DNA of 60,120 nt from Achromobacter insuavis (lineage in GTDB: Bacteria > Pseudomonadota > Gammaproteobacteria > Burkholderiales > Burkholderiaceae_B), in contig NZ_CADIJR010000040.1 of assembly GCF_902859645.1 (NCBI RefSeq), positions 1 to 60,120 of the forward strand, in the 5' to 3' direction. Shown here piece by piece: positions 4,874 to 21,842 of this stretch (positions are counted from its first letter, which is position 1; each line of letters opens with the position of its first letter). The notes under the pieces were generated by a model that was not told the origin of the DNA, ran no database searches, and saw only the letters and a list, made by a program, of their open reading frames with translations. The position numbers and the translations under genes were made by a program.

Positions 4874-5092
4874 TCAAAAACAAAGCCGGGAAATCATTTC
4901 ATTATGCTCGAGCACCTGCCGGCGTATTGCCGCCGGCGTCGCGTCGACCTCGGCGGCGGAATTGAAATATACCGGCCGGGCATGGTCACAATATTCAATC
5001 CCGGTCCGCGGGGGGAGCGATCCGCACCCAGTCAGACTTGAGCCGATCAGCCACGGCATCGTCATCGCTGCGAGCCACTTTTTCCTGCACAT
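4874..5092 (-). CDS. Rz1-like o-spanin lipoprotein
   Basis: The frame overlaps the Rz-like gene in a different register. From ATG 5092 it reads MCRKKWLAAMTMPWLIGSS, then a lipobox LTGC followed by GSLPP, so the mature protein would be a small outer-membrane lipoprotein. Two further Cys residues follow. A 5' extension of the frame to 5143 exists but places extra residues before the signal peptide. The o-spanin links through the periplasm to the i-spanin and fuses the two membranes in the last step of lysis. It is the last gene of the tailocin lysis cassette and extends beyond the i-spanin stop, so the pair is overlapping rather than fully embedded. Confidence 0.8.
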   Translation of the reverse strand: MCRKKWLAAMTMPWLIGSSLTGCGSLPPRTGIEYCDHARPVYFNSAAEVDATPAAIRRQVLEHNEMISRLCF

Positions 5093-5267
5093 CCCTGGCC
5101 TCCTTGCGGGCCTGTCCCGCCCGCGCCTGGAGGCGGGCCTCACTGTCCGAGCGTTCCTGCGCCCGGCCCATGGCCCGCCCCCGCCAATACACCCCGGCGA
5201 CGGCGGCCAGGGCCGCCAGCACTGCCGCCATCAAGCCGAGGCCCCGCTTAATCCACTGTTGCAACAT
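4995..5267 (-). CDS. Rz-like i-spanin
   Basis: This 90-residue protein has one N-terminal transmembrane helix (about residues 8-28) and then a highly charged, Ala/Arg/Glu-rich helical periplasmic domain (RAMGRAQERSDSEARLQARA), the usual i-spanin architecture. The start overlaps the end of the endolysin gene by 20 bases, and the Rz1 frame lies within its 3' part. This is the classic Rz/Rz1 arrangement. It acts after holin and endolysin to disrupt the outer membrane. Confidence 0.8.
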   Translation of the reverse strand: MLQQWIKRGLGLMAAVLAALAAVAGVYWRGRAMGRAQERSDSEARLQARAGQARKEARDVQEKVARSDDDAVADRLKSDWVRIAPPADRD

Positions 5268-5778
5268 GCGCCATGCTCCTGTCGGTCCGCGTCCGGATGG
5301 CCGTCACGGCCTGCTGGTAAAGGCCGCCCCAGCTGTCCGGCTTGGGCTTGCCCGGCCGCCAGGTGCGCAGATACAGCGCCCAGGCCGCCTGCGTGTCGCC
5401 GACCGGCGGCAGCGCCTTCGGATCGGTCCAGAGCAGCAGCCGCGCGACGCCGGCGGCCAGCACGTCGTCGTACTCCAGCGCCGCATAGATCGCATCCGGA
5501 TCGCCCGCCACGCTGCGCGCCTTGCACAGCGTGGCCAGGTGATCCCTGCTGGCCGCGTGCAGGAACACGCCCCACACGCCGCCGCGGCTGGCGCGGGTGC
5601 CCTTCTCGAATTGCCAGAAACCGCGGGCGGGCCCGCCGATCTGGCGCCGATGCACGAAGCGGCTTTCCTGCAGGCCGATGGCCAGCAGCATGCAATCCGC
5701 CGCGGGCGTGTTCATGCGAGCGGGCAACAGCGCCATCGCCGGCCGCAGCGCGTCGTCCATGATCTGGTCAAGCATCAT
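5248..5778 (-). CDS. Phage-type endolysin / lytic transglycosylase-like protein
   Basis: The protein has 176 residues and no obvious signal peptide. Around residues 33-57 it carries AIGLQESRF and, after a gap, GFWQF. These match the catalytic Glu-Ser and the GxxxFQ-like motifs of SLT/lysozyme-fold lytic transglycosylases, making E38 the likely catalytic acid. The rest is helical. An AAGGAGG ribosome site precedes the double ATG, and the start overlaps the end of the holin-like gene. Position between the holin candidate and the spanins supports a role in peptidoglycan degradation. The enzyme class is inferred from two motifs and context. Confidence 0.65.
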   Translation of the reverse strand: MMLDQIMDDALRPAMALLPARMNTPAADCMLLAIGLQESRFVHRRQIGGPARGFWQFEKGTRASRGGVWGVFLHAASRDHLATLCKARSVAGDPDAIYAALEYDDVLAAGVARLLLWTDPKALPPVGDTQAAWALYLRTWRPGKPKPDSWGGLYQQAVTAIRTRTDRSMAHVATVD

Positions 5779-6229
5779 GCCTGCCCTCCTTGTCTGTCTG
5801 GGTTTCCATGCCCAGCGTCTTGCGGCGGATCTCGACCGCCCAATCCACCAGGTCCTGGTTCTGCAGCTTGGCGGTCAGGCGCAGGTAGGCGCCCAGCACC
5901 CACCAGGCCGGCAGCCCCGCCAGCAACATGCACGGGCCGAGCACATAGAACATGGCCAGCAGCCCGTCCTCGCCCAGGCCGGTGCGTTGCGCCATCCAGT
6001 AGGCCGAGGACATCAGGTCGGGCATCCAGGCGATCATGCCGATCGCCAGCAAAGGCCCGAACAGAAATGAGCTGACCACCGTGCAGGCGGTGCGCGCGAC
6101 GAATTCGCGCGGCGTGCGCGGCGGCATCAGCAACATGCCGATCAACGCCGCCATCGCGGCCGGCATGCCGAAAGCCAGCGCAATTTTCAGGGCGGCCCAA
6201 CCGCCCAATCCCGTAGATGCCGGTTCCAT
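5768..6229 (-). CDS. Holin-like membrane protein of the lysis cassette
   Basis: The start at ATG 6229 is chosen because an AGGAG site sits 10 bases upstream; the open frame extends 30 bases further without a site. The 153-residue product has three strongly hydrophobic stretches (about residues 9-33, 44-66 and 85-112) and a charged C-terminal tail, fitting a class I-like holin or a related phage membrane protein. It is the first gene of a four-gene lysis cassette with overlapping ends (this gene, endolysin, Rz, Rz1). The holin assignment rests on topology and position. Confidence 0.6.
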   Translation of the reverse strand: MEPASTGLGGWAALKIALAFGMPAAMAALIGMLLMPPRTPREFVARTACTVVSSFLFGPLLAIGMIAWMPDLMSSAYWMAQRTGLGEDGLLAMFYVLGPCMLLAGLPAWWVLGAYLRLTAKLQNQDLVDWAVEIRRKTLGMETQTDKEGRHDA

Positions 6230-6414
6230 GGTTACACCGCTCCTGTCGACGGTGCGCATTGCTGCCTCCCGTGAGCATCACGGGCGCCGCAGGGGCGCGC
6301 CGGATGAGAAAAATGAAATCCGGGCGACACTGTCGTCCGTTGGTTCCAGGCGCCGCCTGTATCCATCGTTACTATTGCGTTGTCTATTGGTCTTATCTCC
6401 CAGTCTGAATCGCC

Positions 6415-7437
6415 ATGAAACCCTGGACCCGCCGCCAGCCCCGCCGCAAAGCCGCCCCGACCCTCGCCGAAGCGCTCTCCCGCTACCTGGTCGAGGTTTC
6501 CGCCACCAAGAAGGGCCATGCCTCGGAACAGTCGATTGCCCGCATCTGGCGCGCCACGCGCCTGGCCATCCGCCCGGTCGATCGCATCCGCAGTTCCGAC
6601 CTGACGGAATTGCGCGACGAATGGCTCAAGGACCGGGCGCCGGCCACCGTGGTGCGACGCATGGCATTCCTGTCGCACGTCTACACGGTGATTCGCAAGG
6701 ATTGGGGCTTCGACCAATTGGCCAATCCCGTCCAGCTGGTGCGGCGGCCGGCGGTCGACGACGCGCGCGACCGCCGGCTGTTTGACCGCATCACCTTGCG
6801 CGGCGTGTCGGATGACGACTGTCCAAGCAAGGAGCTTGAATGGATCATCCGCGCCACCCGCTCGACGGAATTGCCGACCATCCTGACGGTGGCGAAGGAA
6901 ACCGGCATGCGCCGGTCTGAAGTGGTTGGCATCCAGCGCGAACACCTGGATCTGATGCACGGCGTGGTGCATTTGCCCCACACCAAGAACGGCCGCGCCC
7001 GCGACGTGCCGCTGACGCCTCGCGCTCGCGAGGCGCTGCGTCGCTGGGTCACCGGCAAACCAATGCGAGGCCGCATCTTCACCATGCAGCCCGGCTCGGT
7101 CACCCGCGCCTTCATCCGCGCGCGTCGCCGCGCGAGACTGGGGTACGAGCAGATGTGCCGGCGCTACGGCCGGCGACCCAACGCGGCCTACTTCCGCGAC
7201 TTGCGATTCCATGACCTGCGCCACGAAGGCACCTCGCAGCTCGCCACCGTGTTCCAGATCCACGAATTGGCCAAGGTCAACGGCAACGTCGACACGCGCA
7301 TGCTGCTGCGCTACTACCACCCGCATGGACGCGAATTGGCCCAGAAGCTGGCGCGCAGCCCGCTGGGCCGCCGCCAGCTTGAGGAAATGCGGCGCGAGCG
7401 CGAGGCCGGCCTGGAGGCGCTGCCCCTGGCCGCCTGA
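6415..7437 (+). CDS. Tyrosine recombinase, Rci/shufflon type
   Basis: This 340-residue tyrosine recombinase has an N-terminal SAM-like core-binding domain (about 15-110) and a C-terminal catalytic domain (about 130-310). Visible catalytic residues are R166 (TGMRRSE), K191 (HTKNG), H266-x-x-R269 (HDLR) and the nucleophile Y300 (MLLRY). The usual second His (GH) is Asn at about 291 (NGN), which is unusual. From memory, stretches such as KKGH near the N-terminus, NPVQLVR and HLPxTKNGxxRDVPL resemble plasmid R64 Rci. It lies between the lysis genes and the fibre cassettes, ending 3 bases from the convergent fibre chaperone gene. It is not at an island end, so its likely role is inverting fibre cassettes. 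Prophage integrase is the alternative. Confidence 0.85.
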   Translation: MKPWTRRQPRRKAAPTLAEALSRYLVEVSATKKGHASEQSIARIWRATRLAIRPVDRIRSSDLTELRDEWLKDRAPATVVRRMAFLSHVYTVIRKDWGFDQLANPVQLVRRPAVDDARDRRLFDRITLRGVSDDDCPSKELEWIIRATRSTELPTILTVAKETGMRRSEVVGIQREHLDLMHGVVHLPHTKNGRARDVPLTPRAREALRRWVTGKPMRGRIFTMQPGSVTRAFIRARRRARLGYEQMCRRYGRRPNAAYFRDLRFHDLRHEGTSQLATVFQIHELAKVNGNVDTRMLLRYYHPHGRELAQKLARSPLGRRQLEEMRREREAGLEALPLAA

Positions 7438-7440
7438 CGC

Positions 7441-7791: not shown

Positions 7792-7818
7792 ATTGCTTGT
7801 CCTTTTGAATGAAATTTG

Positions 7819-8078
7819 CACTGCAAATGCGCGGGTGATGGGTAGCCGGCAGGCCGACACGTTCCGGCGCCACTCCCATCGGTTCCAGACTTCCACGGTG
7901 ACGGGTGCCAGCAACGGCGAGGCCTTGGCGGTGCATCGCAGTGTGATGAGCGCAACAAACATCGTCTGGAACAACGCGGGTTCCACGATTGATGATGCTG
8001 GTGGCAACGAGACCCGCCCCGTGAACACTGCCTACCAACCGCGCATCCATTCCTGACGTCTGCCTCACTGCAAATGCG
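7819..8078 (+). repeat. 260-bp inverted repeat, left copy (cassette A)
   Basis: This copy matches the reverse complement of 8790-9049 base for base on visual comparison and stops matching at both ends. It contains a complete silent copy of the currently expressed fibre C-terminus (cassette A, stop at 8056) plus the following recombination site. Because A and E are identical, inversion between the outermost sites would change the order of B, C and D without changing the expressed tip. Confidence 0.9.
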
Positions 8079-8282
8079 CGGGTGATGGGTAGCCGGCAGG
8101 GGGCGGCGTATCAGCAACACAGTCATGGCATCTCCAATCGCATCAGCCCGAACCGTGTTGAGGCGGTCACAGGCACACAAGCCTGGGCCTTGCTCGACGG
8201 CTCTGGGATGACGACCGATGGCGCCGGTGGTGCGGAGACTCGCCCTGTCAACACCGCTTACCACCCGCGCGTCCATACCTGA
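8066..8282 (+). other. Silent fibre C-terminal cassette B
   Basis: From the shared site the frame reads ANARVMGSRQGAAYQQHSHG and ends TRPVNTAYHPRVHT before a stop at 8282. The first ten or so residues match cassettes A and E; the middle (about 45 residues) is different. No ribosome site or fibre N-terminus precedes it, so it should be silent until inverted onto the fibre gene. Confidence 0.8.
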
Positions 8283-8291
8283 TGCCCTTTT

Positions 8292-8547
8292 CACTGTTAA
8301 TGCGCGGGCACATGCCTCTCGCCAGGCAGACGCCTTGCAAGGGCATGGTCATGAGCTTTGGGATCCCTTCACCGGCACAACCTCCGGCAGTGGCTCTTTG
8401 TCCGTATCCCTATCCACCAACCCCGCATCCGGGATATCGATCAACTATGCCTCGGGCAGTCTTCGAGAAGCGGGGCAAGGAGCACCCCGTATCGCCAAGG
8501 AAACACGCCCATCGAATGTCGCTTTTCTGCCCCAGATTCATGCCTGA
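8292..8547 (+). other. Silent fibre C-terminal cassette C
   Basis: The site here is a variant (CACTGTTAATGCGCGGGC). The frame reads NARAHASRQADALQGHGHEL, then a Ser/Gly/Thr-rich stretch, and ends TRPSNVAFLPQIHA at 8547. It is the most divergent cassette in both site and sequence, yet keeps the Asn-Ala-Arg junction and the closing RPxNxAxxPxIH motif. Confidence 0.8.
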
Positions 8548-8549
8548 TT

Positions 8550-8802
8550 TCAAGCATGAATCCGCGGGTAATAGGCCGTGTTCATCGGCCGAACCCGGGC
8601 CACGTTACCGGAGGTGGGAACACCAGCGGTGCCCGGTGCGCTGCTGATCTTCATGCCGGACACCACCGTCGTGGGTTCAAGCCCCCAGAAGGCGGCACCG
8701 GTGGTCGAGTAGTCAGCAATCGACGACAGTCCGGTTGGACCGCCGTTCACTGCGATGGCGCTACCTGATTGTCGCGTACCGATAACTCTCGCATTTGCAG
8801 TG
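8550..8802 (-). other. Silent fibre C-terminal cassette D
   Basis: On the minus strand the site is CACTGCAAATGCGAGAG. The frame reads NARVIGTRQSGSAIAVNGGP and ends RPMNTAYYPRIHA at 8550, about 81 residues. It lies directly downstream of the expressed cassette E in the same orientation, so it needs two successive inversions (or a deletion) to be expressed. Confidence 0.8.
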
Positions 8803-9049
8803 AGGCAGACGTCAGGAATGGATGCGCGGTTGGTAGGCAGTGTTCACGGGGCGGGTCTCGTTGCCACCAGCATCATCAATCGTGGAACCCGCGTTGTTCC
8901 AGACGATGTTTGTTGCGCTCATCACACTGCGATGCACCGCCAAGGCCTCGCCGTTGCTGGCACCCGTCACCGTGGAAGTCTGGAACCGATGGGAGTGGCG
9001 CCGGAACGTGTCGGCCTGCCGGCTACCCATCACCCGCGCATTTGCAGTG
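8790..9049 (-). repeat. 260-bp inverted repeat, right copy (cassette E, expressed)
   Basis: This is the expressed C-terminal end of the fibre gene plus the next site, identical in inverted orientation to 7819-8078. The loop between the two copies is 711 bases and holds cassettes B, C and D. Confidence 0.9.
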
Positions 9050-9780
9050 TCAGCGTCAGTTCCCGTAAAACGCCGGAACATATCGCGCAGATCGGGCACC
9101 CGGAATTGCGTCGCCGAATAGTCCGAAAACCAGTGACTGCCGCGATTCGCCGACCACACAGCCTCGGTTTTCACCAGCCCCTGCTCCTGCGCATACCCCC
9201 ACAGGGCGGCGTAGTCGGTCTTCGACAGCAGGCCGCCGATGGCATCGACTTCGCTGGCCAGCGGCAGCGAGGTATGGCCGTCCAGGGGACGGCCGCACAA
9301 CGGCGAGCGGTAGCCGGTGAAATACTGCCCCGACACCCAGGTCCACACTTCCGCGCATTCCGAGACGATGATCGGCCCGACATCCTGCGTCGGCAACGCG
9401 GTAATCGAGTAGATCCTGGGGAAGTTGCCCGCGACGAACGCGGTGGTGGCCAGCCGGGTACTTTTGTCGCCCGCCGCCGGCGTGGGCGCGGTCGGCGTCC
9501 CGGTCAGCGCCGGCGACGCCGCCAGCGCGGCCACGAACTTGGCCTGCAGCGCCGCCAGGTCGCCGTTGTCCAGCACGTCCTGGCCGGCCTTGTCGGCGAT
9601 GTACTGGCCGATCATGGCGGCCACGAACGAGGCCTGGCGCCAGACGGTGTTGAGTTCCTTCGATTTGGCCGTGCCGGCCGAGAAGCCGCCCAGCCTGGCG
9701 GCCAGCGCCTGGTAGTCGGCGGGAGCGAGCACGTTGGCGCCGGAAACGGTGCCGAAGGGAAGAATTTGATTGATAGCCAC
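8812..9780 (-). CDS. Tail fibre with switchable C-terminus
   Basis: The expressed fibre has 322 residues. The N-terminus (MAINQILPFGTVSGANVLAP) would attach to the baseplate. An Ala-rich stretch, PALTGTPTAPTPAAGDKSTR, is followed by a phage-collar-like domain (FRVPDLRDMFRRFTG). The variable cassette starts at N247 and runs 76 residues to RPVNTAYQPRIHS. His-rich collar and RPxNxAxxP endings are typical of Mu/P2-type fibre tips that bind the target cell surface. The gene overlaps nothing and is followed by silent cassettes rather than directly by its chaperone. The C-terminal domain should set the bactericidal host range of the tailocin. Confidence 0.88.
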   Translation of the reverse strand: MAINQILPFGTVSGANVLAPADYQALAARLGGFSAGTAKSKELNTVWRQASFVAAMIGQYIADKAGQDVLDNGDLAALQAKFVAALAASPALTGTPTAPTPAAGDKSTRLATTAFVAGNFPRIYSITALPTQDVGPIIVSECAEVWTWVSGQYFTGYRSPLCGRPLDGHTSLPLASEVDAIGGLLSKTDYAALWGYAQEQGLVKTEAVWSANRGSHWFSDYSATQFRVPDLRDMFRRFTGTDADTANARVMGSRQADTFRRHSHRFQTSTVTGASNGEALAVHRSVMSATNIVWNNAGSTIDDAGGNETRPVNTAYQPRIHS

Positions 9781-9793
9781 GAAATGTCCTTAT

Positions 9794-10459
9794 TCAACCG
9801 GCAAAAAGCGAGCCCCAGAGTCCGCCGTCGAACCCGGAGATGTATTGGTTTTGAACGTCAAAACCGAACAAAGGCCCCTCAGCCGAGGGGATGACGTAGT
9901 AACTGACGCGCACGCCTTCCGGCTTGAGCGGGATGTACCCGCCGGTAAGTAGCGCCAGGAACAGCGCGGACGGCGGCGTACCGGCGACGCCGATATCCAC
10001 CGACATGTCGCCGTTGTCCTGGATGAACACATGCGTGCCGCCACCGAAAATGCGATCCAGGATCGCCGCCGATGCCTCCAGCGTGCCGTCCCAGTGGTTG
10101 GCCCCGATCTTGGCGCGCAACAACAGCCGATAGGTCTCGTCGTCCAGCTCGGTCAGGCCGCTGTCCGGATCGAACGGGCCCTGCCACACGCCCTGGTCGA
10201 AACCCAGGCCGTCGACGTCGTGCGAGAAGTAGATATTCGAAATGGGCGTCCGGACCTTCCGGTCCAGCCCTACCCAGCGCCCCACGGCGTCCAGCTGGAC
10301 GCCGACGGCCAGATCCAGATCGAAGGCCGCCGGCATGGCGCCGTACAGCTCTCGCAGTCCGGCCGCCGCCCCGCACAGCGCGGCGACGGTCGCATTGAAC
10401 TTGGGCTTGGAGCGGTAATAGGCCGACAGCCGCCCGAGATAATCGTCGGTATTGGCCAT
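9794..10459 (-). CDS. Baseplate protein, DUF2612-like (phage I-like)
   Basis: The product has 221 residues and begins MANTDDYLGRLSAYYRSKPK. It contains AVGVQLDAVGRWVGLDRKVR and LDDETYRLLLRAKIGANHWD, typical of the DUF2612 family found next to baseplate J proteins. It occupies the position of P2 gpI between the J-like protein and the fibre, suggesting a wedge part that anchors the fibre. It follows the J-like gene by one base. Confidence 0.72.
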   Translation of the reverse strand: MANTDDYLGRLSAYYRSKPKFNATVAALCGAAAGLRELYGAMPAAFDLDLAVGVQLDAVGRWVGLDRKVRTPISNIYFSHDVDGLGFDQGVWQGPFDPDSGLTELDDETYRLLLRAKIGANHWDGTLEASAAILDRIFGGGTHVFIQDNGDMSVDIGVAGTPPSALFLALLTGGYIPLKPEGVRVSYYVIPSAEGPLFGFDVQNQYISGFDGGLWGSLFAG

Positions 10460-10460
10460 A

Positions 10461-11642
10461 TCAGGTCACCGTGAGTTTGATGTCGTCCGGCGTCGCGGCG
10501 GCGGCCTCGTTGAAGGCCAGCGACACGTCAGGCGCGCCGCTGCCGGCGGGACCGCGCAGCGTCAGCCCGGAAATCTTGAACGTGCCATTGCCGGCCACGC
10601 CATTGGCCGCCGAAATGGCGTCGGCCCACTCCACCGACGCACTGGCGCCGCCGCCGATCGCGACACCATTGATGTAGTCCGCGACCGCCCGCTGCACCGC
10701 CACGCCGATGGCCGTGGTGTAGCCCGGCAAGGCCCGCAGCTGCACGTCGACCGCCACCGGCACGATCGTGGGCCGGAAGAACCGGATGCGATGCGCGATG
10801 CCGTAGATGTCCGTCACGACCACCGTGGTGGTCCCGTGCGTGCCGGTCCCCGGCGTCTTCTTGGCGGCAATGGCCTGCGCGATCAGCGCCGCGTCGCCGC
10901 CATCGACCACCAGCGCGATGCTGTGCGGCGGCAGGCCGTGGGCGTCCGCCACCGCGCCGTCGTTCTCGAAGGCGGCGTGGCGCAACACGCCAGGCACCGA
11001 CGCGACGGCCCCAATGGTGCCCTCCAGCACGCTGCGCGACGGCAGGGCCACCGAGACGGCCTGGCGCACCCGCAACGCGGCATCGCTCTCGACCGGCGCG
11101 CCTGGCGTTGCCGCCGCCGGGTTGACCACGGACTGCCAGCCCAGCGTCGGCGTGCCGATCTGGTTGATGCTGCCGGCCGCTGCGGTCACGGCGCCCAGCG
11201 CCTGGCTCTGGGCGGTGACGGTGATCTCGCCGCCAGGCGGAATCGTCACGCTGGCCGGCAGTTGCCAGCGGCCGCGGTTGGCATCCATCGCCACGCCATC
11301 GACGATGGTGACGCCGCCCTGCCCCACGATGCGCAGGTCCACCGACGAACGCGTCGCGGCGCCGCGGACCAGGCCGTTGATCTTGACGTTGCTCGACAGC
11401 GCCGCGTTGGCGGCGGTGGCCGGCGAGAACGCGTTGTAGACGCTGATCGCCGCCGAGTTGGCTTCATGGATGGCCAGGGCAAAAACGGCCAGCAACTGAC
11501 CGTCCTGGCTGTCCGCCTCCAGGTAGGTATCGGCGCCGTAGATGCCGCGGTACTGCTCCTTGAAATACTGCAGCACCTCGCCATAGCTCGGCGCACGGAT
11601 GCCCGCGGCGTCGATGACCGGGGCTGTGGAAAGAATCGTCAT
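10461..11642 (-). CDS. Baseplate J-like wedge protein
   Basis: The start is ATG 11642, preceded by AGGCGGC; the longer open frame overlaps the whole upstream gene and is not used. The 393-residue protein has the baseplate J-like features: an N-terminal region with YGEVLQYFKEQYRGIYG, a central beta domain and a C-terminal helical/beta part (SVEWADAISAANGVAG). It is a homologue of P2 gpJ / T4 gp6, which forms the wedge ring and triggers sheath contraction. The start overlaps the W-like gene's stop by four bases. Confidence 0.83.
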   Translation of the reverse strand: MTILSTAPVIDAAGIRAPSYGEVLQYFKEQYRGIYGADTYLEADSQDGQLLAVFALAIHEANSAAISVYNAFSPATAANAALSSNVKINGLVRGAATRSSVDLRIVGQGGVTIVDGVAMDANRGRWQLPASVTIPPGGEITVTAQSQALGAVTAAAGSINQIGTPTLGWQSVVNPAAATPGAPVESDAALRVRQAVSVALPSRSVLEGTIGAVASVPGVLRHAAFENDGAVADAHGLPPHSIALVVDGGDAALIAQAIAAKKTPGTGTHGTTTVVVTDIYGIAHRIRFFRPTIVPVAVDVQLRALPGYTTAIGVAVQRAVADYINGVAIGGGASASVEWADAISAANGVAGNGTFKISGLTLRGPAGSGAPDVSLAFNEAAAATPDDIKLTVT

Positions 11643-11992: not shown

Positions 11993-12000
11993 AGGAATCC

Positions 12001-12744: not shown

Positions 12745-12778
12745 GAATCTTCCTGCAGAGATAGGGCCGGACCGCGCG

Positions 12779-13807
12779 CTACTTGACGACGGCGGCGGGC
12801 TTGGCCGCGTCGCCCTCGGCGCCGGCCCGTCCCAGGTCGCCGGGAAACAGGGTGGCGTCGGTGGCCAGGCAAAGGACCTCCGTGTACCACTCGTCGTCGC
12901 GCGTATTGCCTCGGTGCTCGACTTCCATCACGTAGTAGTAGCCATCGCCGCTGATGCGGCGCTGCTCGGTGCGATCGATCTCGTTCGCGTCCTTGCCCTC
13001 GGAACGGGCCTGGAAGCCATACTCGGCGATCCGGCTGTTGTCCAGGTTGACCAGCCCTCCCACGCGGATGCTGGGATTGAGCAGCATCCGCAGCTTGATG
13101 CCCTTCTCGGTCTGCTCCGGCATGCCCACCAGGCCGCTGTCGTGGGACAGCACGGGCACCGAGCCCGGCACATAGGCGGTTTCGGGGACCACCACCACCT
13201 TGCCGTCCTGGATGCTCCACAGCGTGTTCGCGCTGCCGCAGACATCCTGCAGGTAGTCGCGCACCATGCCGGACATGACCGCCCCGCGGATCGACTTCTT
13301 GCCGCCCAGGTCGGGCACGTAACCCTGGCGCACGCCGTAGGGATTCATGGCCGAGCACAGCAGTTTCACCTTGTCGGCGCGGGAGCTGCCCTTGGGCACG
13401 GTGGCATTGACCACCGCGAAGTTGTAGGCCTTGTCGCCGTCGGCCGCGGTGATTTCCAGCACGGTCTCGGTGTCACCCGAACCGCCCCATTTGGCGCGCA
13501 CCACGTTGCCATGGAAGATCACGCCATAGTTGCCTTCATAGCCTGCCTGCAACACCACGCGGGTGAATTCGCGCTGCACCAGGCTGGCCGTTTCGCGGCT
13601 GGCGTTCATCACCTTGATGGTGGCGGTGTTGGGCGACTTGACGTCGTTGCGCTTGATGCCGAAGCTGAAGCTCAGCGCCGACAGATCCAGCGCTTCCTCG
13701 TCGCCGACGATCAGCGAGACCTTCCGGCCCCACTGGCGCACGCCCTCATCGTCATCGACCGGATCGCCGTATACGGCGATCGGCTCCATTGTGGTCGTCT
13801 CGGCCAT
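12779..13807 (-). CDS. Baseplate hub protein (gpD/gp27-like)
   Basis: The protein is 342 residues from ATG 13807, which overlaps the upstream stop in TGACATG and suggests coupled translation; an upstream in-frame ATG at 13840 is less likely. The sequence has the two-barrel look of phage hub proteins, with segments such as ALSFSFGIKRNDVKSPNTAT and TAADGDKAYNFAVVNATVP. It should join the tube to the spike. Confidence 0.7.
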   Translation of the reverse strand: MAETTTMEPIAVYGDPVDDDEGVRQWGRKVSLIVGDEEALDLSALSFSFGIKRNDVKSPNTATIKVMNASRETASLVQREFTRVVLQAGYEGNYGVIFHGNVVRAKWGGSGDTETVLEITAADGDKAYNFAVVNATVPKGSSRADKVKLLCSAMNPYGVRQGYVPDLGGKKSIRGAVMSGMVRDYLQDVCGSANTLWSIQDGKVVVVPETAYVPGSVPVLSHDSGLVGMPEQTEKGIKLRMLLNPSIRVGGLVNLDNSRIAEYGFQARSEGKDANEIDRTEQRRISGDGYYYVMEVEHRGNTRDDEWYTEVLCLATDATLFPGDLGRAGAEGDAAKPAAVVK

Positions 13808-13808
13808 G

Positions 13809-14108
13809 TCAGTCCGCCACCCAATAGAGCTTGGCGCCACGGCCCAGGTCGGTGGCCGTCGGCGCGTCGTCGGGCGACTCCGCCCCCGTCACGCGCAGGC
13901 CGCCGGCGAAGCCCAGGTGCCGGTACTGCCCCAGCAGGTTCAGGCCCGTCACCAGCGGAATGCCGGACACCAGCGGCTGGCCGAGGTCATCGGCCACGTC
14001 CAGTATCCAGCCGTCGCGATACTGCAACGTCAGCCGGTAATCGTCACCGCCCAGCGAGATGGCGAACACCTGCGGGATCGGCGACAGAGGTATCTCGAAG
14101 TAGTTCAT
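13809..14108 (-). CDS. Small tail/baseplate protein (phage 99-residue family)
   Basis: The product begins MNYFEIPLSPIPQVFAISLG and is a compact beta-rich domain (DDYRLTLQYRDGWILDV). Small proteins like this sit between the Dit-like and hub genes in phages with this tail type. The exact role is unknown; a structural or adaptor role is inferred from position. Confidence 0.65.
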   Translation of the reverse strand: MNYFEIPLSPIPQVFAISLGGDDYRLTLQYRDGWILDVADDLGQPLVSGIPLVTGLNLLGQYRHLGFAGGLRVTGAESPDDAPTATDLGRGAKLYWVAD

Positions 14109-14117
14109 GCGGATCTC

Positions 14118-14717
14118 CTAGTTCCAATGCAGCGAGCCGCCGTTGGGCGCGGCCGCGGGCCGGGACGCTTTCACGCCCAGGTTCTGCTTGTCCGCGGTCT
14201 TTTCCTTCTCTTTCTGGTGCGCGTAGGGCGGCAGCGACGTGCTGCGGGTCTGCGCCACGATCACTTCGCGCAGCGTCACGGTCGCGAACACGGCGCCGGA
14301 GGTCTCCCGGCTGTTCTCGACCGCGATTTTCTCGATCAGCATGCTGCTGTAGCGGCGCCGGCTGGTGATCACATCCACCGGCTCGCGCGACTCCTGCAGA
14401 CTGAGCAGCTGCGAATAGATCGCGGTGGCGTAATCGTCGGCGGCCGCCTTGCCATTGGCCACGTCCCTGGCCCGGGCGCCGCGCAACGCCTCGTACGAGG
14501 CGTTGCTCCAGGCGCACTTCATGGTCAGCGACAGCGGCAGCTTGAAGGCATGGTCGCTGATCGCCGAGCGGCCATAGGGGCCCGACTCCACCGGATGGCT
14601 GGTGATCTTCAGCGTATCTTCGTGCGACTCGGTGATGGTCGCCTGCACCACGATGTCGCCGATCTTCTTCGACAGCAGGCCCACCATGTCGGTGCCCGTG
14701 AAATTCGTGTCAGTCAT
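14118..14717 (-). CDS. Dit-like baseplate protein
   Basis: The 199-residue protein begins MTDTNFTGTDMVGLLSKKIG and includes ITSHPVESGPYGRSAISDHA, which resembles the N-terminal part of Dit-like phage tail proteins. The C-terminal 40 residues are charged and low-complexity. The start overlaps the tape-measure stop by eight bases. It probably links the tube to the baseplate hub. Confidence 0.65.
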   Translation of the reverse strand: MTDTNFTGTDMVGLLSKKIGDIVVQATITESHEDTLKITSHPVESGPYGRSAISDHAFKLPLSLTMKCAWSNASYEALRGARARDVANGKAAADDYATAIYSQLLSLQESREPVDVITSRRRYSSMLIEKIAVENSRETSGAVFATVTLREVIVAQTRSTSLPPYAHQKEKEKTADKQNLGVKASRPAAAPNGGSLHWN

Positions 14718-16386
14718 AGGACCCCTGCAGGTTGCGCGTCAGGTCGGCGTTGACCCGGCTCTGTTGATTGGCCACGGCCGCTCCGGTCGCGCCGGGATCG
14801 GCCGACCCGTTGACGTAGATGGTGGTGGTGGCATTGACCGACACCGGCGCGGCGGCGGCCGGCGGCGCCAGCGCGGCGCCCCCCGCTTCGCCAAGCGCGA
14901 AGCCGGAGTGGTAGTCCCGCCACGGCTCGATCCGGGCGCCGTCCATGGGAGGCGGTTGCCAACTGCCGCCGGCCCCGTTGAAGCCCGGCTCCGCTTGCCC
15001 GAGGCCGAAACGCCCGTCGCCTTGCAGCGACTTCAGCGTGCCGTCCCCAAGCGTGCTGGGATACAGGCCCAGTCCCACCCCCACCGCCACCGGCGATATC
15101 GCCACGCCGCGGGCCAGGCTCTTGGCGCCGTCGACGATGCGGCCGATCCACGAACTGGCGGAGGCCCACAGTGACTGCCCCCATTGCAACGCGGAGGCGC
15201 CGGCCGCCTTGACGCTGTCGACCACCAGCGCACCACCGCGCGCGGCCATATTGCCCATCCAGGACCAGACCGCGCCGGCCATGTTGCTCATCTGGGTGAC
15301 GGCCGTCCGCCCCATCGAGGTCATTCTGCCGAACACGCCGCCCACGAAATTGCTGGTCGCGGTCCAGGCCCGGCTCACGAAACCGCTGATTTGGCCAGGC
15401 AGCGCGGCCAGCCGAGTACCCAGTCCGCTGATGATCGAGCGCATGCCGCCCAGTCGCGAGACCAGGCCCATCAAGGCCCCCACCACGCCGCCGCCGCCCA
15501 GCATCAGGAAGCCGCCGACCAGCACCAGGAGCTGCGAACTCAAGCCCCCGGTCAGGTCGTCGAGCCAGGTGATCAGGCTGATCACCGGCCCCAGCAACGA
15601 CATGATCGACAACACGAAATTGCCGACCTCGCCCAGCCGCTTGCCGGCCGTCTGGCCGTTCTCCTTGAACCAGGCCGAAATGCCGTCGAGCGTCTCCTGC
15701 AGTTTCGGGCCCATCGTCAGGAGCGCCTGCGCGAACATCGCGTTGACGGAGCCGCTCAATTCACGGATGGTGCCCATCAGCTGGTGCGCGCGTTCACCGG
15801 CCGCCTCGACCGTGCTGTTCTCCTGGGCATCGCGCTGCACCGACAGGCGCTGCCCGAACTCGGGATCGCGCAGAGCCTCCATGACGCCCGGGTCCAGCCC
15901 CAGGCTCTCGCCCGTCGCCCGGGCCTGCGCCGGATCCATGCGCTTGAGCGCGTCGCTCAGCTCCAGCATCAGGTCGGCGCTGTTGCGCTGGGCGCCCGCG
16001 CCATCACTCGACGAGATGTGCAGCTGTTCCAGCAGCGCGGCGATCTTGGGATCGTCGCGCACGTTGCGGTGCAGCGCCTGGGTACTGCTGCGCATCGCTT
16101 CGACGGAAACGCCGAAGCCCTGCGCGACTGTCTCCAACGCCCGCATGTCCCGGCCCGAGGTGCCGCCCAGCTTGGCGGCGAAATAGCCTTGCTCGAACTG
16201 GGCGATCTTGTTCTCGGCGAAGTCGACGACGCTCTTCGCGCGGCCCGCGAACACCGCCAGCGCGTCGGCCAGGCTCTGCTTGCGCGAGTCGCCGATCGCC
16301 TGCTTGAGGTCCTTCAGGTCGTCCTTGTCGAGTTTGAATGGGCCCATCAACCCCGACAGGCTGATGGGCACGGTTGTATTAGCCAT
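14710..16386 (-). CDS. Tail tape-measure protein
   Basis: The 558-residue protein is mostly helical, with Ala/Gln/Lys-rich coiled-coil segments in the first 270 residues, hydrophobic segments around 255-335 (VLSIMSLLGPVISLITWL; a Gly-rich LMLGGGGVVGALMGLV), and a Gly/Pro/Ala-rich C-terminus. This is the usual tape-measure composition. The family rule of about 1.5 angstrom per residue predicts a tail near 80-85 nm. The start overlaps the stop of the frame-shifted chaperone extension. Confidence 0.85.
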   Translation of the reverse strand: MANTTVPISLSGLMGPFKLDKDDLKDLKQAIGDSRKQSLADALAVFAGRAKSVVDFAENKIAQFEQGYFAAKLGGTSGRDMRALETVAQGFGVSVEAMRSSTQALHRNVRDDPKIAALLEQLHISSSDGAGAQRNSADLMLELSDALKRMDPAQARATGESLGLDPGVMEALRDPEFGQRLSVQRDAQENSTVEAAGERAHQLMGTIRELSGSVNAMFAQALLTMGPKLQETLDGISAWFKENGQTAGKRLGEVGNFVLSIMSLLGPVISLITWLDDLTGGLSSQLLVLVGGFLMLGGGGVVGALMGLVSRLGGMRSIISGLGTRLAALPGQISGFVSRAWTATSNFVGGVFGRMTSMGRTAVTQMSNMAGAVWSWMGNMAARGGALVVDSVKAAGASALQWGQSLWASASSWIGRIVDGAKSLARGVAISPVAVGVGLGLYPSTLGDGTLKSLQGDGRFGLGQAEPGFNGAGGSWQPPPMDGARIEPWRDYHSGFALGEAGGAALAPPAAAAPVSVNATTTIYVNGSADPGATGAAVANQQSRVNADLTRNLQGSYD

Positions 16387-17013: not shown

Positions 17014-17016
17014 GGC

Positions 17017-17457
17017 TTAGTAGATCCCCAGGATCGTGTCGATCTTCGCGGCGTCGAACGTCCACTTCACCACGTCGCCGTCCTTCTTGTAGGTCAGATC
17101 GGGCTTCTTGCTGAAGGCGCAGGAACGGCACGCCGTCACGTCGCCCGTGGCCGGGTTGGTGATGGTGATCAGGTTCTTGCCCCACAGGCGGCTGTCCAGC
17201 GACTGGGCGTCGTACAGGGCCTGCAGCTGCGCGTTGACCGGCGAGGTCTTCAGGTAGCTCAGCGTGACGGTGCCGCTCTTGTCGGCGCGCAGCGTGTGCA
17301 TGACTTCGCCGTCGGCGCCCACCGTCATGGCGCTTTTCTCGGCCTTGGCGGCGATGGCGATGCCTTCATCGGCCACGCCCGAGCCGGAACCCAGCGAAAT
17401 CACCCCGCCCGGGCCCACGAGACTGGCGCTGATATCAGCGAACGAATAGGTAGACAT
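17017..17457 (-). CDS. Tail tube protein (DUF3277-like)
   Basis: The 146-residue protein begins MSTYSFADISASLVGPGGVI and contains KSGTVTLSYLKTSPVNAQLQ and the Cys pair CRSC. It resembles the DUF3277 family of tail tube proteins. It lies immediately downstream of the sheath, as expected for a contractile tail, and would stack into the inner tube. Confidence 0.8.
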   Translation of the reverse strand: MSTYSFADISASLVGPGGVISLGSGSGVADEGIAIAAKAEKSAMTVGADGEVMHTLRADKSGTVTLSYLKTSPVNAQLQALYDAQSLDSRLWGKNLITITNPATGDVTACRSCAFSKKPDLTYKKDGDVVKWTFDAAKIDTILGIY

Positions 17458-17470
17458 CTGCTACTCCTGT

Positions 17471-18946
17471 TTAGCGGTTGACCGTGACCAGAACGTCGAC
17501 GGTGTGGATGGCGCCGGCTTCCTTGGCGGCGACCTGGAACGGGACGGCCTTGCGCACTTCGCGGTCGGCCTGCGACTGGGTGGCGATCGCCGGCGCGTAG
17601 ACGTAGTAGCCCTTGGCCAGCGTGTCGCCCTGCTTGAGAGCGCCGAAGCCGGCCGAGTTCCACACGCCCGGGGCCAGGTAGCCGTTGTTGACGGCGGCCT
17701 CGCACGCAGCCTCGATCACCGAGGCGATCAGCTGGTTGCCGGCGTCGGTCTGCGGCACCTTGGTCGGGCTGGTGTACAGCAGGTTGTAGACGTCGGTCTG
17801 GACGCGGTTGCGGAACCAGATTGCGTTGTAGACCGAGTCGATGAAGATGCCGCTGGGCGTCACGCCGTACTGGATGATGGCCGTGTCGTTGTCGTAATTG
17901 ACGAACACGTTGCAGTTCTTGGCCGCCAGCGTGTCGGCCTGGCTGCTGCTCAGGGTCTCGGCGACGATGCCGGGCTCCTGCTTGTACATCAGCGTGATGG
18001 TGGTGTTGTTGGCGTTGAAGTTCACCGTCAGCATGCGGCCCAGCAGCGAGGCCACCGCGTACGGATTGGCGCTGGAGAACTGCACGATCGAGTACTTGTA
18101 CTTCAGCGCCTTCAACTGGCTGGCGATGTCGTCGTGGTTGGTCGGGTCCAGCACCTGCGGCGCCTGGGTCGACACGCCATACAGGTGGCGCTGGTCGGCC
18201 TCGATCAGGGCGGCCACGGCCAGGTGCTGCGCGCTGGTGATATCGGCGTCGGCGAAGGCCAGGCCCAGGAACTTGTTGGCGAAGCGGTCCAGGAACAGCG
18301 ACACGGCGTCCACCGGGGACTCGGCAACGACGCCGGCCACGGGCGCCGAGGCCTTGGCCGCGGTCAGGCCCAGCATCGACGAGATGTCGGTGCCGGCGCC
18401 GGCGGCCGAGGCGTAGCCCAGCGTCGACGTGGCGCCCGAGGTGTTCGAGGTCACGACGAACTGCGAGCCGTTCCACAGCACCGATGCCGAGGCCAGGGCC
18501 GTCGAGATGATCGTGGCGACGCCGTTCAGGTTGGTGGCGCCGGAGAAGTCCAGGCCATTGACCGTCTTGGCGGTGCCGTCGACGGTCAGCGTGAAGGCGC
18601 CCGCGGTCACCGCGGTCCAGGCCGACATCTGCTTCTCGGCGGCCGACAGCACGGCGCCGCGCAGCGTGGCCGAGGTCGCGCCCTTGGCCCAGCGGCCGAT
18701 GTACAGCTGCGAGGGCTGGGGCGTCTGCTGGAAGTACAGCAGGGCCGCGCGGTACTCGGGCGCGCTGGTGCCGAAGTCGGCGGCGACGGCGTCGATGCCG
18801 CCATAGGAGCGCATGCGCTCGCCGGTGTCGATGACCGCGGACGAGCCCAGCAGCAGCGCGGTGTTCAGGCTCGCGCCTTGCGCCGCGAGCGGCGACATGT
18901 TGATCGTGACGTTGATCAGGCGTGATACCGGCAATCCATTAGCCAT
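17471..18946 (-). CDS. Tail sheath protein (DUF3383-like)
   Basis: The start at ATG 18946 has an AAGGGAT site; the open frame 60 bases further upstream overlaps the preceding gene. The 491-residue protein begins [20 protein letters not shown] and contains [20 protein letters not shown], close to the DUF3383 sheath family. The C-terminal domain ([15 protein letters not shown], later [10 protein letters not shown]) is the usual sheath handshake end. This is the contractile component of the tail and the strongest marker that the island encodes a myovirus-type machine. Confidence 0.85.
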
Positions 18947-18956
18947 GGTAAATCCC

Positions 18957-19550
18957 TTAATCTTCAAGGTGGTTGATGTTGTCCGTCGGGGACAGCGACG
19001 CGGCATGCGTCGTGACTTGCGCCGACAGGAGATTCAGGACCGGATAGCTGCGCGTGACCCGCCGCGTGAAGTGCAGGGTCATGTCGAACTGCCGTATCCA
19101 CTGCTGATTCACCAGTTCATGCCTGGCCAGGATCGGCCCCGCGCCGCCGACCGCCATGCCTTGCGTCAGCAAGGGCTCGCGGTTCTGCGGCACGGCGGCG
19201 CCATCGCGCAGCAACGCCGCATGGCGCAGCGCGCGCGGTCCGTACATCGAGCAAAGCACCTCGATGTCTTCGTGCCGAACGTATGAATCAGATCCTTCCC
19301 CGGTCGGGTCGTGGGCAACGACCGGACCGGCGTCCGCGGTTTGCGACCGGATGTCCATCAGGCACCAGGTATCGGTTTGCGCGGGCGGTTCCACGCCGGC
19401 CGCGGGCCAGTGTGTGCGAACCATGTCTGCGGGCAGGCCGGACACGCCGGCGATGAACCCATGCAACAGCGCCTCGAGCTCGGCATCCTCCAGGGGCGGA
19501 GAAATGGCGATCGGCGCCAGGTAGCCGCCGGTGGCCGAACTATTCGCCAT
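18957..19550 (-). CDS. Tail terminator / completion-like protein
   Basis: The start is ATG 19550, with AAAGGAGC just upstream; the open frame continues 90 bases further without a site. The 197-residue product contains [20 protein letters not shown] and an HFTRRVTR stretch near the end. A protein like this sits just before the sheath in related myophage tails and probably caps the tail. It is the first gene of a long leftward tail operon running from 19550 to about 7441. Confidence 0.65.
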
Positions 19551-19821
19551 GCGTCGCTCCTTTGTCGTGTTGAGATGCCCGAGGGCGGGTTTGGGGGAAT
19601 CCAGAGGCCTGGAGGCGGAACGCCGACTTTGCTGCGCCATCGGCGCGGTGCCGCGTTGCGTAATGCGTGCGGCCGGGTTGCGGCGGATTCCGGCTGTCGC
19701 CCACCGGGCTGCCGCCTCAAGCCATTCCAGGTCACCGCGGGCGGGAGAAAGGCCCGGTCATGGAAGGAACGGCGAGGCGGCAGGCCGCTGGGCCCCGCCT
19801 TGCGGGCGGCGCCAAGCAAAA

Positions 19822-19882
19822 CGCCCCGCGCTCTCGAAGAGAACGCGGGGCGCGCAAATGAAAAAGGCCCGCCTGTGGCGAG
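19822..19882 (-). terminator. Two tandem terminators upstream of the tail operon
   Basis: On the minus strand one stem (GGCTCGCC/GGCGGGCC with TTTTT, about 19862-19882) is followed by a second long stem (CGCCCCGCG...CGCGGGGCG with TTTT, about 19822-19852). They would block leftward transcripts from the regulator side from entering the tail genes. Confidence 0.65.
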
Positions 19883-20032
19883 CCTGTCTCGGGGAACTGC
19901 AAAGAACGCGAGGGACGCGTATCCGGCGATTCATCCGCCTTCCGGCGGTGGCCGGGCACACGTACCCTCTCATAAATAAGGCCCGCTGTCGGCGGGCCTG
20001 GTTTGCTTGCTGCTTGTTTGTTGCTTGTTGCT

Positions 20033-21080: not shown

Positions 21081-21842
21081 ATGGACATCCGCTCGATACG
21101 ACTGAACAACCTCAAGTACGCCGTGCACGAAGCGGGGGGCGTCGACCGCCTGGCCGAACGCGCCGGCGTCAGTCGCAAATACCTCGACCAGATCCTTCAA
21201 GGGTTCCAGGGCAGGCGCGACAAGAACCCACGCCGGGTCGGCGACGCGCTGGCCGCCAAGCTGGCCGCCGGCCTGGGCCAGCCCGCCCACTGGATGGACC
21301 TGCCCCACCCCGACCTGTGGCGCGAACTCTCGCCCGACGTCATGGCCGACGAACCCGCGGGCCGGCTCGTCTCCTTCCACCCCGCGCGGCTGGGCAGGCC
21401 GGATCACGGCAACGTCCTCATCGCCCAGTTCGACACCGGCGGCGCAATGGGCAATGGCCTGGAACTGCGCGACCAGCCCGGCGTCATCCAGAGCTGGAAC
21501 GTCAGCCCGGAGTGGCTGCAGAAGAACGTGCGGGGTTTCTCCGCCTCGAAGAACCTGTGCATCGTCACGGGGTTCGGCGATTCCATGCGCCCCATGTTCA
21601 ACCCCGGCGATCCCCTGATCGTCGACCGCGGCGTGCAGGCCGTCGAATACGACGCCATCTACTTCTTCCGCGTCGGCAGCGAAGGCTTCATCAAGCGGCT
21701 GCAACGCATTCCCACCGCCACTGGCCTGGTGGTCAGGGCCAAATCCGAGAACACCAAGTACGACGCCTGGGACATCACCGAAGGCATGGATTTCGAGGTC
21801 TTCGGCCGCGTGCTGAAGGTCTGGCGCAGCGAGGACTTCTAA
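21081..21842 (+). CDS. SOS-type phage repressor (HTH + S24 peptidase)
   Basis: The 253-residue protein has an N-terminal helix-turn-helix (about 18-45: DRLAERAGVSRKYLDQIL) and a C-terminal LexA/CI-type S24 peptidase domain. The catalytic Ser is S168 in GFGDSMRP and the Lys is K205 in GFIKRL. An Ala-Gly at 93-94 is a candidate self-cleavage site in the linker. DNA damage should activate RecA-assisted autocleavage and derepress the island. The ATG follows directly on an operator half site. It is the right-hand end of the recognisable island; the next gene starts 5 bases after the stop but looks chromosomal. Confidence 0.88.
   Translation: MDIRSIRLNNLKYAVHEAGGVDRLAERAGVSRKYLDQILQGFQGRRDKNPRRVGDALAAKLAAGLGQPAHWMDLPHPDLWRELSPDVMADEPAGRLVSFHPARLGRPDHGNVLIAQFDTGGAMGNGLELRDQPGVIQSWNVSPEWLQKNVRGFSASKNLCIVTGFGDSMRPMFNPGDPLIVDRGVQAVEYDAIYFFRVGSEGFIKRLQRIPTATGLVVRAKSENTKYDAWDITEGMDFEVFGRVLKVWRSEDF

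What the first reader, a model, noticed from the sequence alone, without database searches (positions are those of the whole stretch)
7819..9780. A tail-fibre shufflon in a tailocin: five interchangeable C-terminal cassettes around one constant fibre
Seen: five cassettes (A 7819-8056, B 8066-8282, C 8292-8547 on plus; D 8802-8550, E 9049-8812 on minus) each begin with a shared short site in the same frame and end with RPxNxAxxPxxH. Only E is joined to the fibre N-terminus. The sites are inverted between the two halves, so inversion would swap tips. Known: plasmid R64 uses a similar arrangement for pilV, and carotovoricin-type tailocins invert fibre segments using serine invertases. Inference: this tailocin can change its target range through a multi-cassette, tyrosine-recombinase shufflon, which I do not know to be described for tailocins.
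Basis: partly seen in the sequence, partly recalled or inferred. Interest (0 to 1): 0.93.

Follow-up and report, generated by a model that had tools for sequence, protein, structure and literature searches.

The report
Tailocin tip-switching shufflon in Achromobacter
A bacterial gene cluster for a headless phage tail (probably a weapon against other bacteria) carries a built-in DNA switch that can swap the tip of the tail fibre among several stored versions, and relatives of this switch are caught in different positions in otherwise identical DNA.

Summary
In detail: five in-frame tail-fibre tip cassettes, each starting at a CACTGCAAATGCG-type site, three on plus and two on minus, one joined to the fibre. 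Corrections: A and E are identical (238 of 238 bases; exact repeat of 260), so there are four distinct tips; the site of C differs at two core bases and may be inactive. The neighbouring gene is a tyrosine recombinase distantly related to plasmid Rci; a search found no serine recombinase in the genome. The cluster is tail plus lysis and sits at one chromosomal place in 10 of 43 Achromobacter genomes: a tailocin by gene content. The same module, with a nearly invariant 9-base core, occurs across the family. Inversion is visible in relatives: two metagenome contigs with identical flanks differ by an exact 474-base inversion between two cores, changing the expressed tip; one genome's contigs hold alternative junctions; many contigs stop at the core. 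Core variants match within loci, and one tracks a recombinase clade. Not shown: inversion in this strain's own culture, or that tips change the target. Precedents: R64/Rci, Rin of bifidophages, carotovoricin. A tailocin with a tyrosine-recombinase tip shufflon was not found in my paper searches.

The parts
6415..7437 (+). tyrosine recombinase (invertase of the shufflon), 340 aa
   Evidence: PF00589 E 8.8e-18; R, K, HxxR, Y catalytic residues present, Asn at the usual His/Trp position; 31% identical to an Rci-type plasmid recombinase
7441..7791 (-). tail fibre assembly protein, 116 aa
   Evidence: phrog_105 tail fiber assembly 7e-7
7819..7831 (+). core site A, CACTGCAAATGCG
7819..8056 (+). silent cassette A (identical to E)
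8066..8282 (+). silent cassette B with core 8066-8078
8292..8547 (+). silent cassette C; core 8292-8304 is CACTGTTAATGCG (two mismatches), predicted poor substrate
8550..8802 (-). silent cassette D with core 8802-8790, tail to tail with C
8812..9049 (-). expressed cassette E, joined to the constant fibre at core 9049-9037
9050..9780 (-). constant N-terminal part of the tail fibre (residues 1-243)
   Evidence: phrog_11303 tail fiber 1.8e-34; conserved in 6 relatives while tips vary
9794..10459 (-). DUF2612 baseplate-type protein
   Evidence: PF11041 2.9e-56
10461..11600 (-). baseplate J-like protein (start codon not decided; longest ORF to 11864)
   Evidence: PF04865 2.7e-11, phrog_6
12779..13840 (-). 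baseplate hub (E217 gp41-like)
   Evidence: PF22759 2.8e-11
14710..16386 (-). tail tape measure protein
   Evidence: phrog_2276 1.4e-22
17017..17457 (-). tail tube-type structural protein (KPP10 ORF10 family; tube role by position)
   Evidence: PF11681 2.1e-56
17471..19006 (-). contractile tail sheath
   Evidence: phrog_205 5.2e-126; DUF3383 7.8e-153
18957..19640 (-). neck/tail terminator
   Evidence: PF23961 1.3e-26
21081..21842 (+). S24-type (LexA/CI-like) repressor, probable SOS control of the tailocin
   Evidence: PF00717 8.9e-15; role inferred
4995..5267 (-). Rz-like spanin (lysis)
   Evidence: phrog_1026 4.4e-15
5248..6259 (-). two further small genes in the lysis position (endolysin and holin by position and look, not by a named family)
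   Evidence: phrog_3108 and phrog_1024, both of unknown function

Best explanation
This is an invertible tip-switch ('shufflon') built into a contractile tailocin of an Achromobacter. The tyrosine recombinase at 6415-7437 recombines pairs of oppositely oriented cores (CTGCAAATG within CACTGCAAATGCG). Each inversion that uses the core inside the fibre gene replaces the last 71-84 residues of the fibre by another stored tip, in frame; inversions elsewhere reorder the silent stock. Tips probably set which cells the tailocin binds. Shown in relatives: exact inversion between cores with exchange of the expressed tip, alternative junctions in the contigs of one genome, matching of cores within a locus. 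Shown here: anatomy, site uniqueness, recombinase type. Inferred: activity in this strain, that this recombinase does it, tip equals receptor binding, SOS control, killing.
For: Five cores, unique in the genome, 3 plus and 2 minus, all in frame. PF00589 recombinase next door; no PF00239 match in the genome, the control finding the family in 10 of 14 named genomes. L146 against L227: 0 mismatches in 3354 flanking bases, while exactly the 474 bases between two opposed cores are inverted, so tip t147 is expressed in one and t146 in the other; L189 agrees with L227 over the 4182 bases they share. IMG genome number 2855751197: contigs L139 and L222 carry t134|t79 and constant|t79 junctions of one 100% identical cassette, with contig-end overlaps of about 127 bases. 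Of 77 viral contigs with the constant-end/core pattern, 24 end within 300 bases on the cassette side, 8 within 8 bases and 6 one or two bases after CAAATG; 0 of 77 end within 1000 bases on the constant side. Window-type tailocins of A. deleyi (G006, both contigs) and A. pulmonis (G018, one of two) also stop at the core. 9-mer core identical in 270 of 279 distinct cassette DNAs; variant cores are shared by the sites of a locus in L073 and L149 (CTGCTAATG, 2 of 2 each) and L082 and L083 (CTGCGAAT, 4 of 4 each), and the L073 and L149 recombinases are sisters, 100/100. Nine tip clusters are expressed in one locus and silent in another.
Against: The window contig runs unbroken through the region, so its assembly gives no sign of alternative junctions apart from the A/E duplicate. 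The directly observed inversion is in relatives whose fibre aligns best only from residue 89 (L146) and which are not shown to be tailocins. Site C departs from the core. Contig ends in a viral collection are biased (a contig must hold phage genes, here on the constant side), and a long duplicate like A/E could itself break some assemblies. The L139/L222 reading rests on assembler output, not on reads. Five of 11 draft loci in the genus are not split. Six of 118 loci with two or more sites are not core-coherent, the window among them. Two of the ten same-place tailocins (G009, G020) have no recombinase in the stretch read. No structure model could be made.
Confidence: 0.87

Rival explanations
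1. A silent-cassette archive whose tips are exchanged only by slow homologous recombination or gene conversion between strains, with the recombinase being a phage integrase relic.
For: The shared 35-base stretch of A, B and E exceeds the core, and the identical stretch at the breakpoints of L146/L227 is 24 bases; tips are shared between loci with different flanks; in Pectobacterium, tail-fibre loci are exchanged by homologous recombination (PMC13195805, passages).
Against: Inversion at the core between otherwise identical DNA; contigs ending at the core; core variants matched within loci and one tracking a recombinase clade; the recombinase mostly has cores beside it across the family (none recognised near L084 or L065).
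Confidence: 0.05
2. The particle is not a tailocin but a tail-only remnant of a decaying prophage, so switching has no killing role here.
For: No particle or killing data. A related tail module belongs to a phage isolate (Burkholderia phage Magia, 74% over 25%).
Against: The tail module (sheath at least 90% identical) is in 10 of 43 genus genomes; on one contig between the same two host genes in 8, split by contig ends in 2; the two genes are about 17-21 kb apart. In 18 other genomes of the 43 they are 0.4-0.7 kb apart, in 14 they are 2.1-3.6 kb apart (not examined), and one genome could not be judged. Repressor and a spanin are present.
Confidence: 0.15
3. The system once worked but is locked in this strain (A equals E, C core mutated), leaving B and D as the only real alternatives or none.
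For: A = E; C core unique among 279; unbroken contig.
Against: Recombinase frame intact; B and D cores perfect; even with C inert 12 arrangements and tips A/E, B and D remain reachable in a simple model.
Confidence: 0.2
4. Cassette A is an assembly artefact: the true locus has four cassettes and the assembler wrote one mobile cassette twice.
For: Zero mismatches in 260 bases with ends exactly at cores; the same pattern, one copy expressed, in Bordetella LUAb4 (t8); misassembled IncI2 shufflons are reported (PMC5430464, passages).
Against: The contig passes through with distinct outer flanks on both copies; real duplication by excision and re-insertion is also possible.
Confidence: 0.4

Closest known systems
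Rin shufflon of Bifidobacterium and Eggerthella prophages (PMC6109161, PMC8778435; abstracts and passages seen)
   Same: Tyrosine recombinase beside a constant receptor-binding-protein gene and several C-terminal cassettes with a short asymmetric repeat at each; rearranged variants between prophages.
   Different: Actinobacterial prophages, other repeats (TTCCCTAACCC, ttccgtat); homology of Rin to this recombinase not tested.
R64-type plasmid shufflon, Rci and pilV (PMC5430464 and PMC3414803, passages)
   Same: Multi-segment inversion by a related tyrosine recombinase (31% over 87%) exchanging C-termini of a surface adhesin; some segments hold two partial genes.
   Different: Target is a conjugative pilus tip; the repeat is another sequence (recalled); the recombinases fall in a different supported clade.
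Carotovoricin, ein invertase (PMC12090994, PMC13195805, passages; original paper not held)
   Same: A tailocin whose fibre locus inverts and so changes killing spectrum.
   Different: Here several stored tips with cores.
Serine-invertase tail-fibre shufflons (Min of p15B; gin of the Enterobacter phage FR-phi; PMC6109161, PMC13418256, passages)
   Same: Several stored fibre C-termini are shuffled; in FR-phi only one of three tips served the tested host.
   Different: Recombinase family (for gin recalled from its name); phages, not tailocins.
Burkholderia phage Magia tail module (MT701587)
   Same: Homologous contractile tail genes, 74% DNA identity over 25% of the query.
   Different: A phage isolate with a 44,942-base genome; I did not look for cores in it.

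Membership tests
Tyrosine-recombinase shufflon (multi-inversion, R64/Rin kind) | tyrosine recombinase gene adjacent to the segments | tested here: met
   PF00589 8.8e-18 at 6415-7437, catalytic residues aligned
Tyrosine-recombinase shufflon (multi-inversion, R64/Rin kind) | three or more copies of one short asymmetric site in both orientations at segment ends | tested here: met
   five sites, 3 plus, 2 minus, unique in the genome
Tyrosine-recombinase shufflon (multi-inversion, R64/Rin kind) | one constant gene and several alternative in-frame 3' ends | tested here: met
Tyrosine-recombinase shufflon (multi-inversion, R64/Rin kind) | inversion between sites observed | tested here: inconclusive
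   observed in relatives L146/L227 and, as alternative junctions, L139/L222; not in this strain
R64 Rci/pilV shufflon | recombinase belongs to the Rci clade | tested here: not met
   homologous (31%, E 2e-26) but outside the clade that groups the two Rci-type plasmid rows and two others at 99/99
R64 Rci/pilV shufflon | target is pilV of a conjugative plasmid | tested here: not met
   target is a tail fibre
Rin phage shufflon | recombinase is a Rin orthologue | not tested
   no Rin sequence was fetched
Serine-invertase fibre switch (Gin/Min/Ein) | serine recombinase of the PF00239 family | tested here: not met
   0 matches in the genome, control positive in 10 of 14
Contractile (R-type) tailocin | sheath, tube, tape measure, baseplate, fibre and lysis genes | tested here: met
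   of the lysis set only the spanin has a named hit
Contractile (R-type) tailocin | no capsid, portal or terminase genes in the cluster | tested here: met
   ORFs chosen to tile 4995-24063 were scanned, not every ORF against every library; three families that PHROGs files under head and packaging (phrog_349, phrog_280, phrog_587) are structural proteins in tail positions. Same-place clusters of relatives span about 17-21 kb; their content was not scanned
Contractile (R-type) tailocin | fixed chromosomal place shared by related species | tested here: met
   10 of 43 genus genomes, 8 of them on one contig
Contractile (R-type) tailocin | headless particle that kills other bacteria | not testable with these tools
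   needs a culture

The most novel reading that the evidence does not exclude
The core makes tips into free-standing cassettes: the recombinase not only inverts but excises and inserts them, integron-like, so tailocins and prophages of Achromobacter, Bordetella and relatives draw on one shared pool of targeting tips. The exact site-to-site duplicates (A = E here, t8 in Bordetella LUAb4) would be captured copies. Supporting: 234 tip clusters in 84 loci; 44 pairs of loci share a cassette at 90% or more DNA identity, and in 18 both 100-base flanks are below 65% (some pairs overlap or come from one genome, and plain inversion plus homologous exchange would also change flanks).
Probability: 0.3. 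Interest if true: 0.82.

Novelty: new variant of a known kind. Interest (0 to 1): 0.64.

Why it matters
Tailocins are released by lysis of the producing cell (recalled), so a clone that holds several tips and shuffles them would release a mixed arsenal: target breadth without mutation. Unlike a two-state switch this one stores several tips, and the same module is found in at least three named genera, in this tailocin and beside other phage tail types. Because a draft genome shows one arrangement, killing spectra predicted from assemblies may be wrong. The prediction can be tested with sequencing reads.

Tried and rejected
Serine invertase: rejected, no PF00239 match in the genome. Recombinase as the element's integrase: the best phage relatives are about 35% identical (70 records, all below 60%; of the 30 listed most are annotated as integrase or recombinase), and the cluster has a fixed place; kept only as part of a rival. 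Chance repeats: rejected by the genome-wide count. The 17-base junction pattern is absent from 398 of 399 genomes drawn across the order, the own genome being the one hit; 12 of the 398 are of the same family, so the pattern is not universal in the family either. Decayed second recombinase at G000:C2 (L270): no core within one mismatch there. No solved structure matches either protein by sequence. The nearest plasmid recombinase (Paraburkholderia, 45%) has no annotated adhesin beside it; I did not scan it for cores. In the tree the row called XerC is not usable (wrong frame, 516 aa), XerD has a very long branch, and the window family as a whole has mixed support (81/99). The variants listed for L150 and L170 are probably false cassettes. 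In one search the second match of L252 was dropped (78 matches, 77 contigs). In one search a partial recombinase (G020:C16, residues 1-102, 90%) was left out of my count.
Full report
WHAT WAS CLAIMED AND CHECKED. The region 7819-9049 holds five cassettes of 217-256 bases. Each opens with the site CACTGCAAATGCG (C: CACTGTTAATGCG), is read in the frame T-A-N-A-R (C: T-V-N-A-R), and ends with RPxNxAxxPxxH, one more residue and a stop. Three are on plus, two on minus; only E is fused to the fibre gene 9780-8812. The site occurs five times in the 6.82 Mb genome, all here (the reversed pattern once). So there are four distinct tips.

WHERE IT IS. The fibre belongs to a contractile tail cluster: sheath, tube-type protein, chaperone, tape measure, hub, baseplate proteins, terminator, fibre assembly and a spanin, with an S24-type repressor at 21081-21842 preceded by GTAGCGA/TCGCTAC-type palindromes. 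No capsid, portal, terminase or further integrase was seen in the ORFs scanned; these were chosen to tile the cluster, not every ORF was scanned against every library. A sheath at least 90% identical occurs in 10 of 43 genus genomes, own included. In 8 of these the cluster lies on one contig between the same diguanylate-cyclase-like gene and AI-2E-type transporter gene, about 17-21 kb apart; in G006 and G018 the two genes lie on two contigs that end in the shufflon. In 18 of the other 33 genomes the two genes are 0.4-0.7 kb apart, in 14 they are 2.1-3.6 kb apart (content not examined), and in one (G033) no clear counterpart of the first gene was found. That is the picture of an inherited tailocin rather than a roaming prophage. 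Two of the ten, G009 and G020, carry this tailocin with a fibre matching only residues 2-195 and no recombinase in the stretch read.

THE RECOMBINASE. The gene at 6415-7437 is a tyrosine recombinase. Arg, Lys, HxxR and Tyr are in place; the usual His/Trp is Asn in 7 of the 8 rows of the window's supported subclade, G093 having His, and is Asn also in L139 and L146, whose loci show rearrangement. In the plasmid collection 2272 records match, 1455 of them Escherichia, mostly conjugative, about 31% identity in most of the 40 rows listed; the one I opened with its neighbours is annotated as shufflon-specific and sits beside pilV. In a tree of 28 rows two Rci-type plasmid rows and two others form a clade at 99/99, apart from the window family; the latter's overall support is mixed, 81/99. 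Among phage isolates 70 records match, all below 60% identity. The genome has no PF00239 serine recombinase by search, with the control positive in 10 of 14 genomes.

THE MODULE IS WIDESPREAD. Recombinases at least 89% identical over full length appear at 16 loci including the window (one with an internal stop), in 14 genus genomes and one of another genus, among 268 family genomes searched. Named carriers of the recombinase include A. kerstersii, pulmonis, ruhlandii, piechaudii, deleyi, dolens, Bordetella pseudohinzii, Bordetella sp. LUAb4 and Herbaspirillum sp. 3R11. The constant fibre end followed by the core (CGCTGACACTGCAAATG) is found in 77 contigs of the viral collection but in only 1 of 399 genomes drawn across the order, the own one. 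My script collected 474 cassettes (with redundancy), in 234 clusters at 80% protein identity, over 84 loci non-redundant by cassette DNA; the largest locus, L078, has ten. Nine clusters are expressed in one locus and silent in another; two more of the eleven counted are the within-locus duplicates of the window and of L070.

THE SITE. Over 279 distinct cassette DNAs, 270 have the 9-mer CTGCAAATG. Silent sites show little conservation upstream, and a weak right arm that also encodes the protein. In L078 the two bases left of the 9-mer follow the upstream context, not the cassette, which places the exchange inside or right of the 9-mer's left edge (my reading). Variants are shared within a locus: both sites of L073 and both of L149 have CTGCTAATG, and their recombinases are sisters at 100/100. 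L082 has CTGCGAAT in all four cassette-like frames, L083 in four; these two genomes share a genus, their recombinases were not in the tree. Of 118 loci with two or more sites 112 are coherent; the six others are the window (its C), L136 and L170 each counted twice through overlapping loci (L233, L225), and L150 (redundant loci). Tyrosine recombinases generally need matching sequence between the crossing strands (established knowledge), so I predict that C is a poor substrate. With C active a simple inversion model reaches 48 arrangements and all tips; with C inert 12 arrangements and tips A/E, B and D.

INVERSION SEEN. (a) L146, L189 and L227 come from three IMG/VR entries (metagenomes by their numbers, recalled). 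L146 against L227: no mismatch in 3354 flanking bases, while the 474 bases between two opposed cores are exactly inverted. BLAST gives 99.97% over 2876 bases and 99.8% over 533, each with one mismatch, because those alignments run a little into the inverted segment. The identical stretch at each breakpoint is 24 bases beginning with the core. The expressed tip differs. L189 agrees with L227 over their 4182 shared bases; it stops just after the segment, so it shows one flank only. (b) Contigs L139 and L222 carry the same IMG genome number, 2855751197 (an isolate by its number, recalled). In L222 cassette t79 follows the constant fibre; in L139 it follows the neighbour t134; both contigs end with t135 joined to the t134 side, in overlaps of about 127 bases. 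Both orientations of the segment are therefore in that assembly. (c) Contig ends: 24 of 77 within 300 bases into the cassettes, 8 of 77 within 8 bases, 6 of 77 within 2; none of 77 within 1000 on the other side. The collection favours phage genes on the constant side, so the one-sidedness is partly expected, but the pile-up at the core is not. (d) Of 11 shufflon loci in draft genus genomes (more than three contigs) with recombinases at 82% or more, 6 are split between contigs (G006, G009, G012, G017, the G018 tailocin, G020) and 5 are not (G000, the second locus of G018, G029, G030, G031). In A. piechaudii both contigs stop at CACTGCAAATGC; in A. deleyi both stop at the core; in A. pulmonis, kerstersii and ruhlandii one of two stops at the core or within 5 bases of it; the remaining ends lie inside a cassette. 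Assembly failure in shufflons because of mixed arrangements in one clone is documented for IncI2 plasmids (PMC5430464, abstract and passages).

MECHANISM. Best reading: opposed cores recombine, the fused core carries the reading frame across, and the fibre receives another C-terminus. Inference only: activity here, receptor binding by tips, benefit of mixed lysates. I could not model the fibre.

COMPARED WITH THE KNOWN. It works like R64/Rci and like Rin of bifidophages, which is the nearest precedent: a tyrosine recombinase, a constant part and several variable RBP ends (PMC6109161, abstract and passages; also in Eggerthella prophages, PMC8778435, abstract and passages). Carotovoricin is the precedent for inversion in a tailocin (PMC12090994 and PMC13195805, passages; the original paper was not held). 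Xenorhabdus tailocins also invert, with no invertase in the locus (PMC13280938, passages). A 2012 survey placed nine predicted prophages of beta-proteobacteria in the recombinase family of R64 and reported no shufflon beside them (PMC3414803, passages). No paper in the library held tailocin, tyrosine recombinase and tail fiber together; of the seven with tailocin, DNA inversion and tail fiber I opened passages of three; a search of shufflon with three host genera, any two terms, listed 15 of 729 papers and none of the 15 held shufflon. Most subscription papers are not in that library, so absence there is weak evidence.

VERDICT. Observation confirmed with amendments; interpretation supported; a new variant of a known kind: a tyrosine-recombinase multi-tip shufflon in a tailocin, belonging to a family-wide module also found beside other phage tails. 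The bold reading, an integron-like tip pool, is open. On checking, the confidence went from 0.88 to 0.87, because only one core variant, not two, was shown to track a recombinase clade.

Noticed in passing
G000:C2:39064-40057 (locus L270): A decayed second copy of the recombinase (83% identical, in pieces with stops) lies several kb from another phage-like tail region; no cores remain near it.
   Followed up: partly
window 20003-20130: A tandem run of TTGCTTGTTGCTGC-like units lies between the S24 repressor side and the tail operon.
   Followed up: no
window 7279-7320 (recombinase motif NGNVDTRMLLRYYH): The usual His/Trp catalytic residue is Asn in 7 of 8 rows of the window's recombinase subclade, also at loci that show rearrangement, while other family members have His or Trp.
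   Followed up: partly
L252 1843-2305: Two constant-fibre/core junctions face each other about 450 bases apart, as if two fibre genes shared one shufflon.
   Followed up: no
L078, L076, L249: Shufflons with nine or ten cassettes; in L078 and L076 some pairs of sites lie head to head about 13 bases apart.
   Followed up: no
L115 11779 and 12888 (Bordetella sp. LUAb4): Exact duplicate cassette, one copy expressed and one silent, like A/E in the window.
   Followed up: partly
window 20980-21080: GTAGCGA/TCGCTAC palindromic repeats just before the S24 repressor gene look like its operators.
   Followed up: no
14 Achromobacter genomes such as G030:C34:115616-119209: The place where the tailocin sits in ten genomes holds 2.1-3.6 kb of other DNA in 14 genomes; its content was not looked at.
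   Followed up: no
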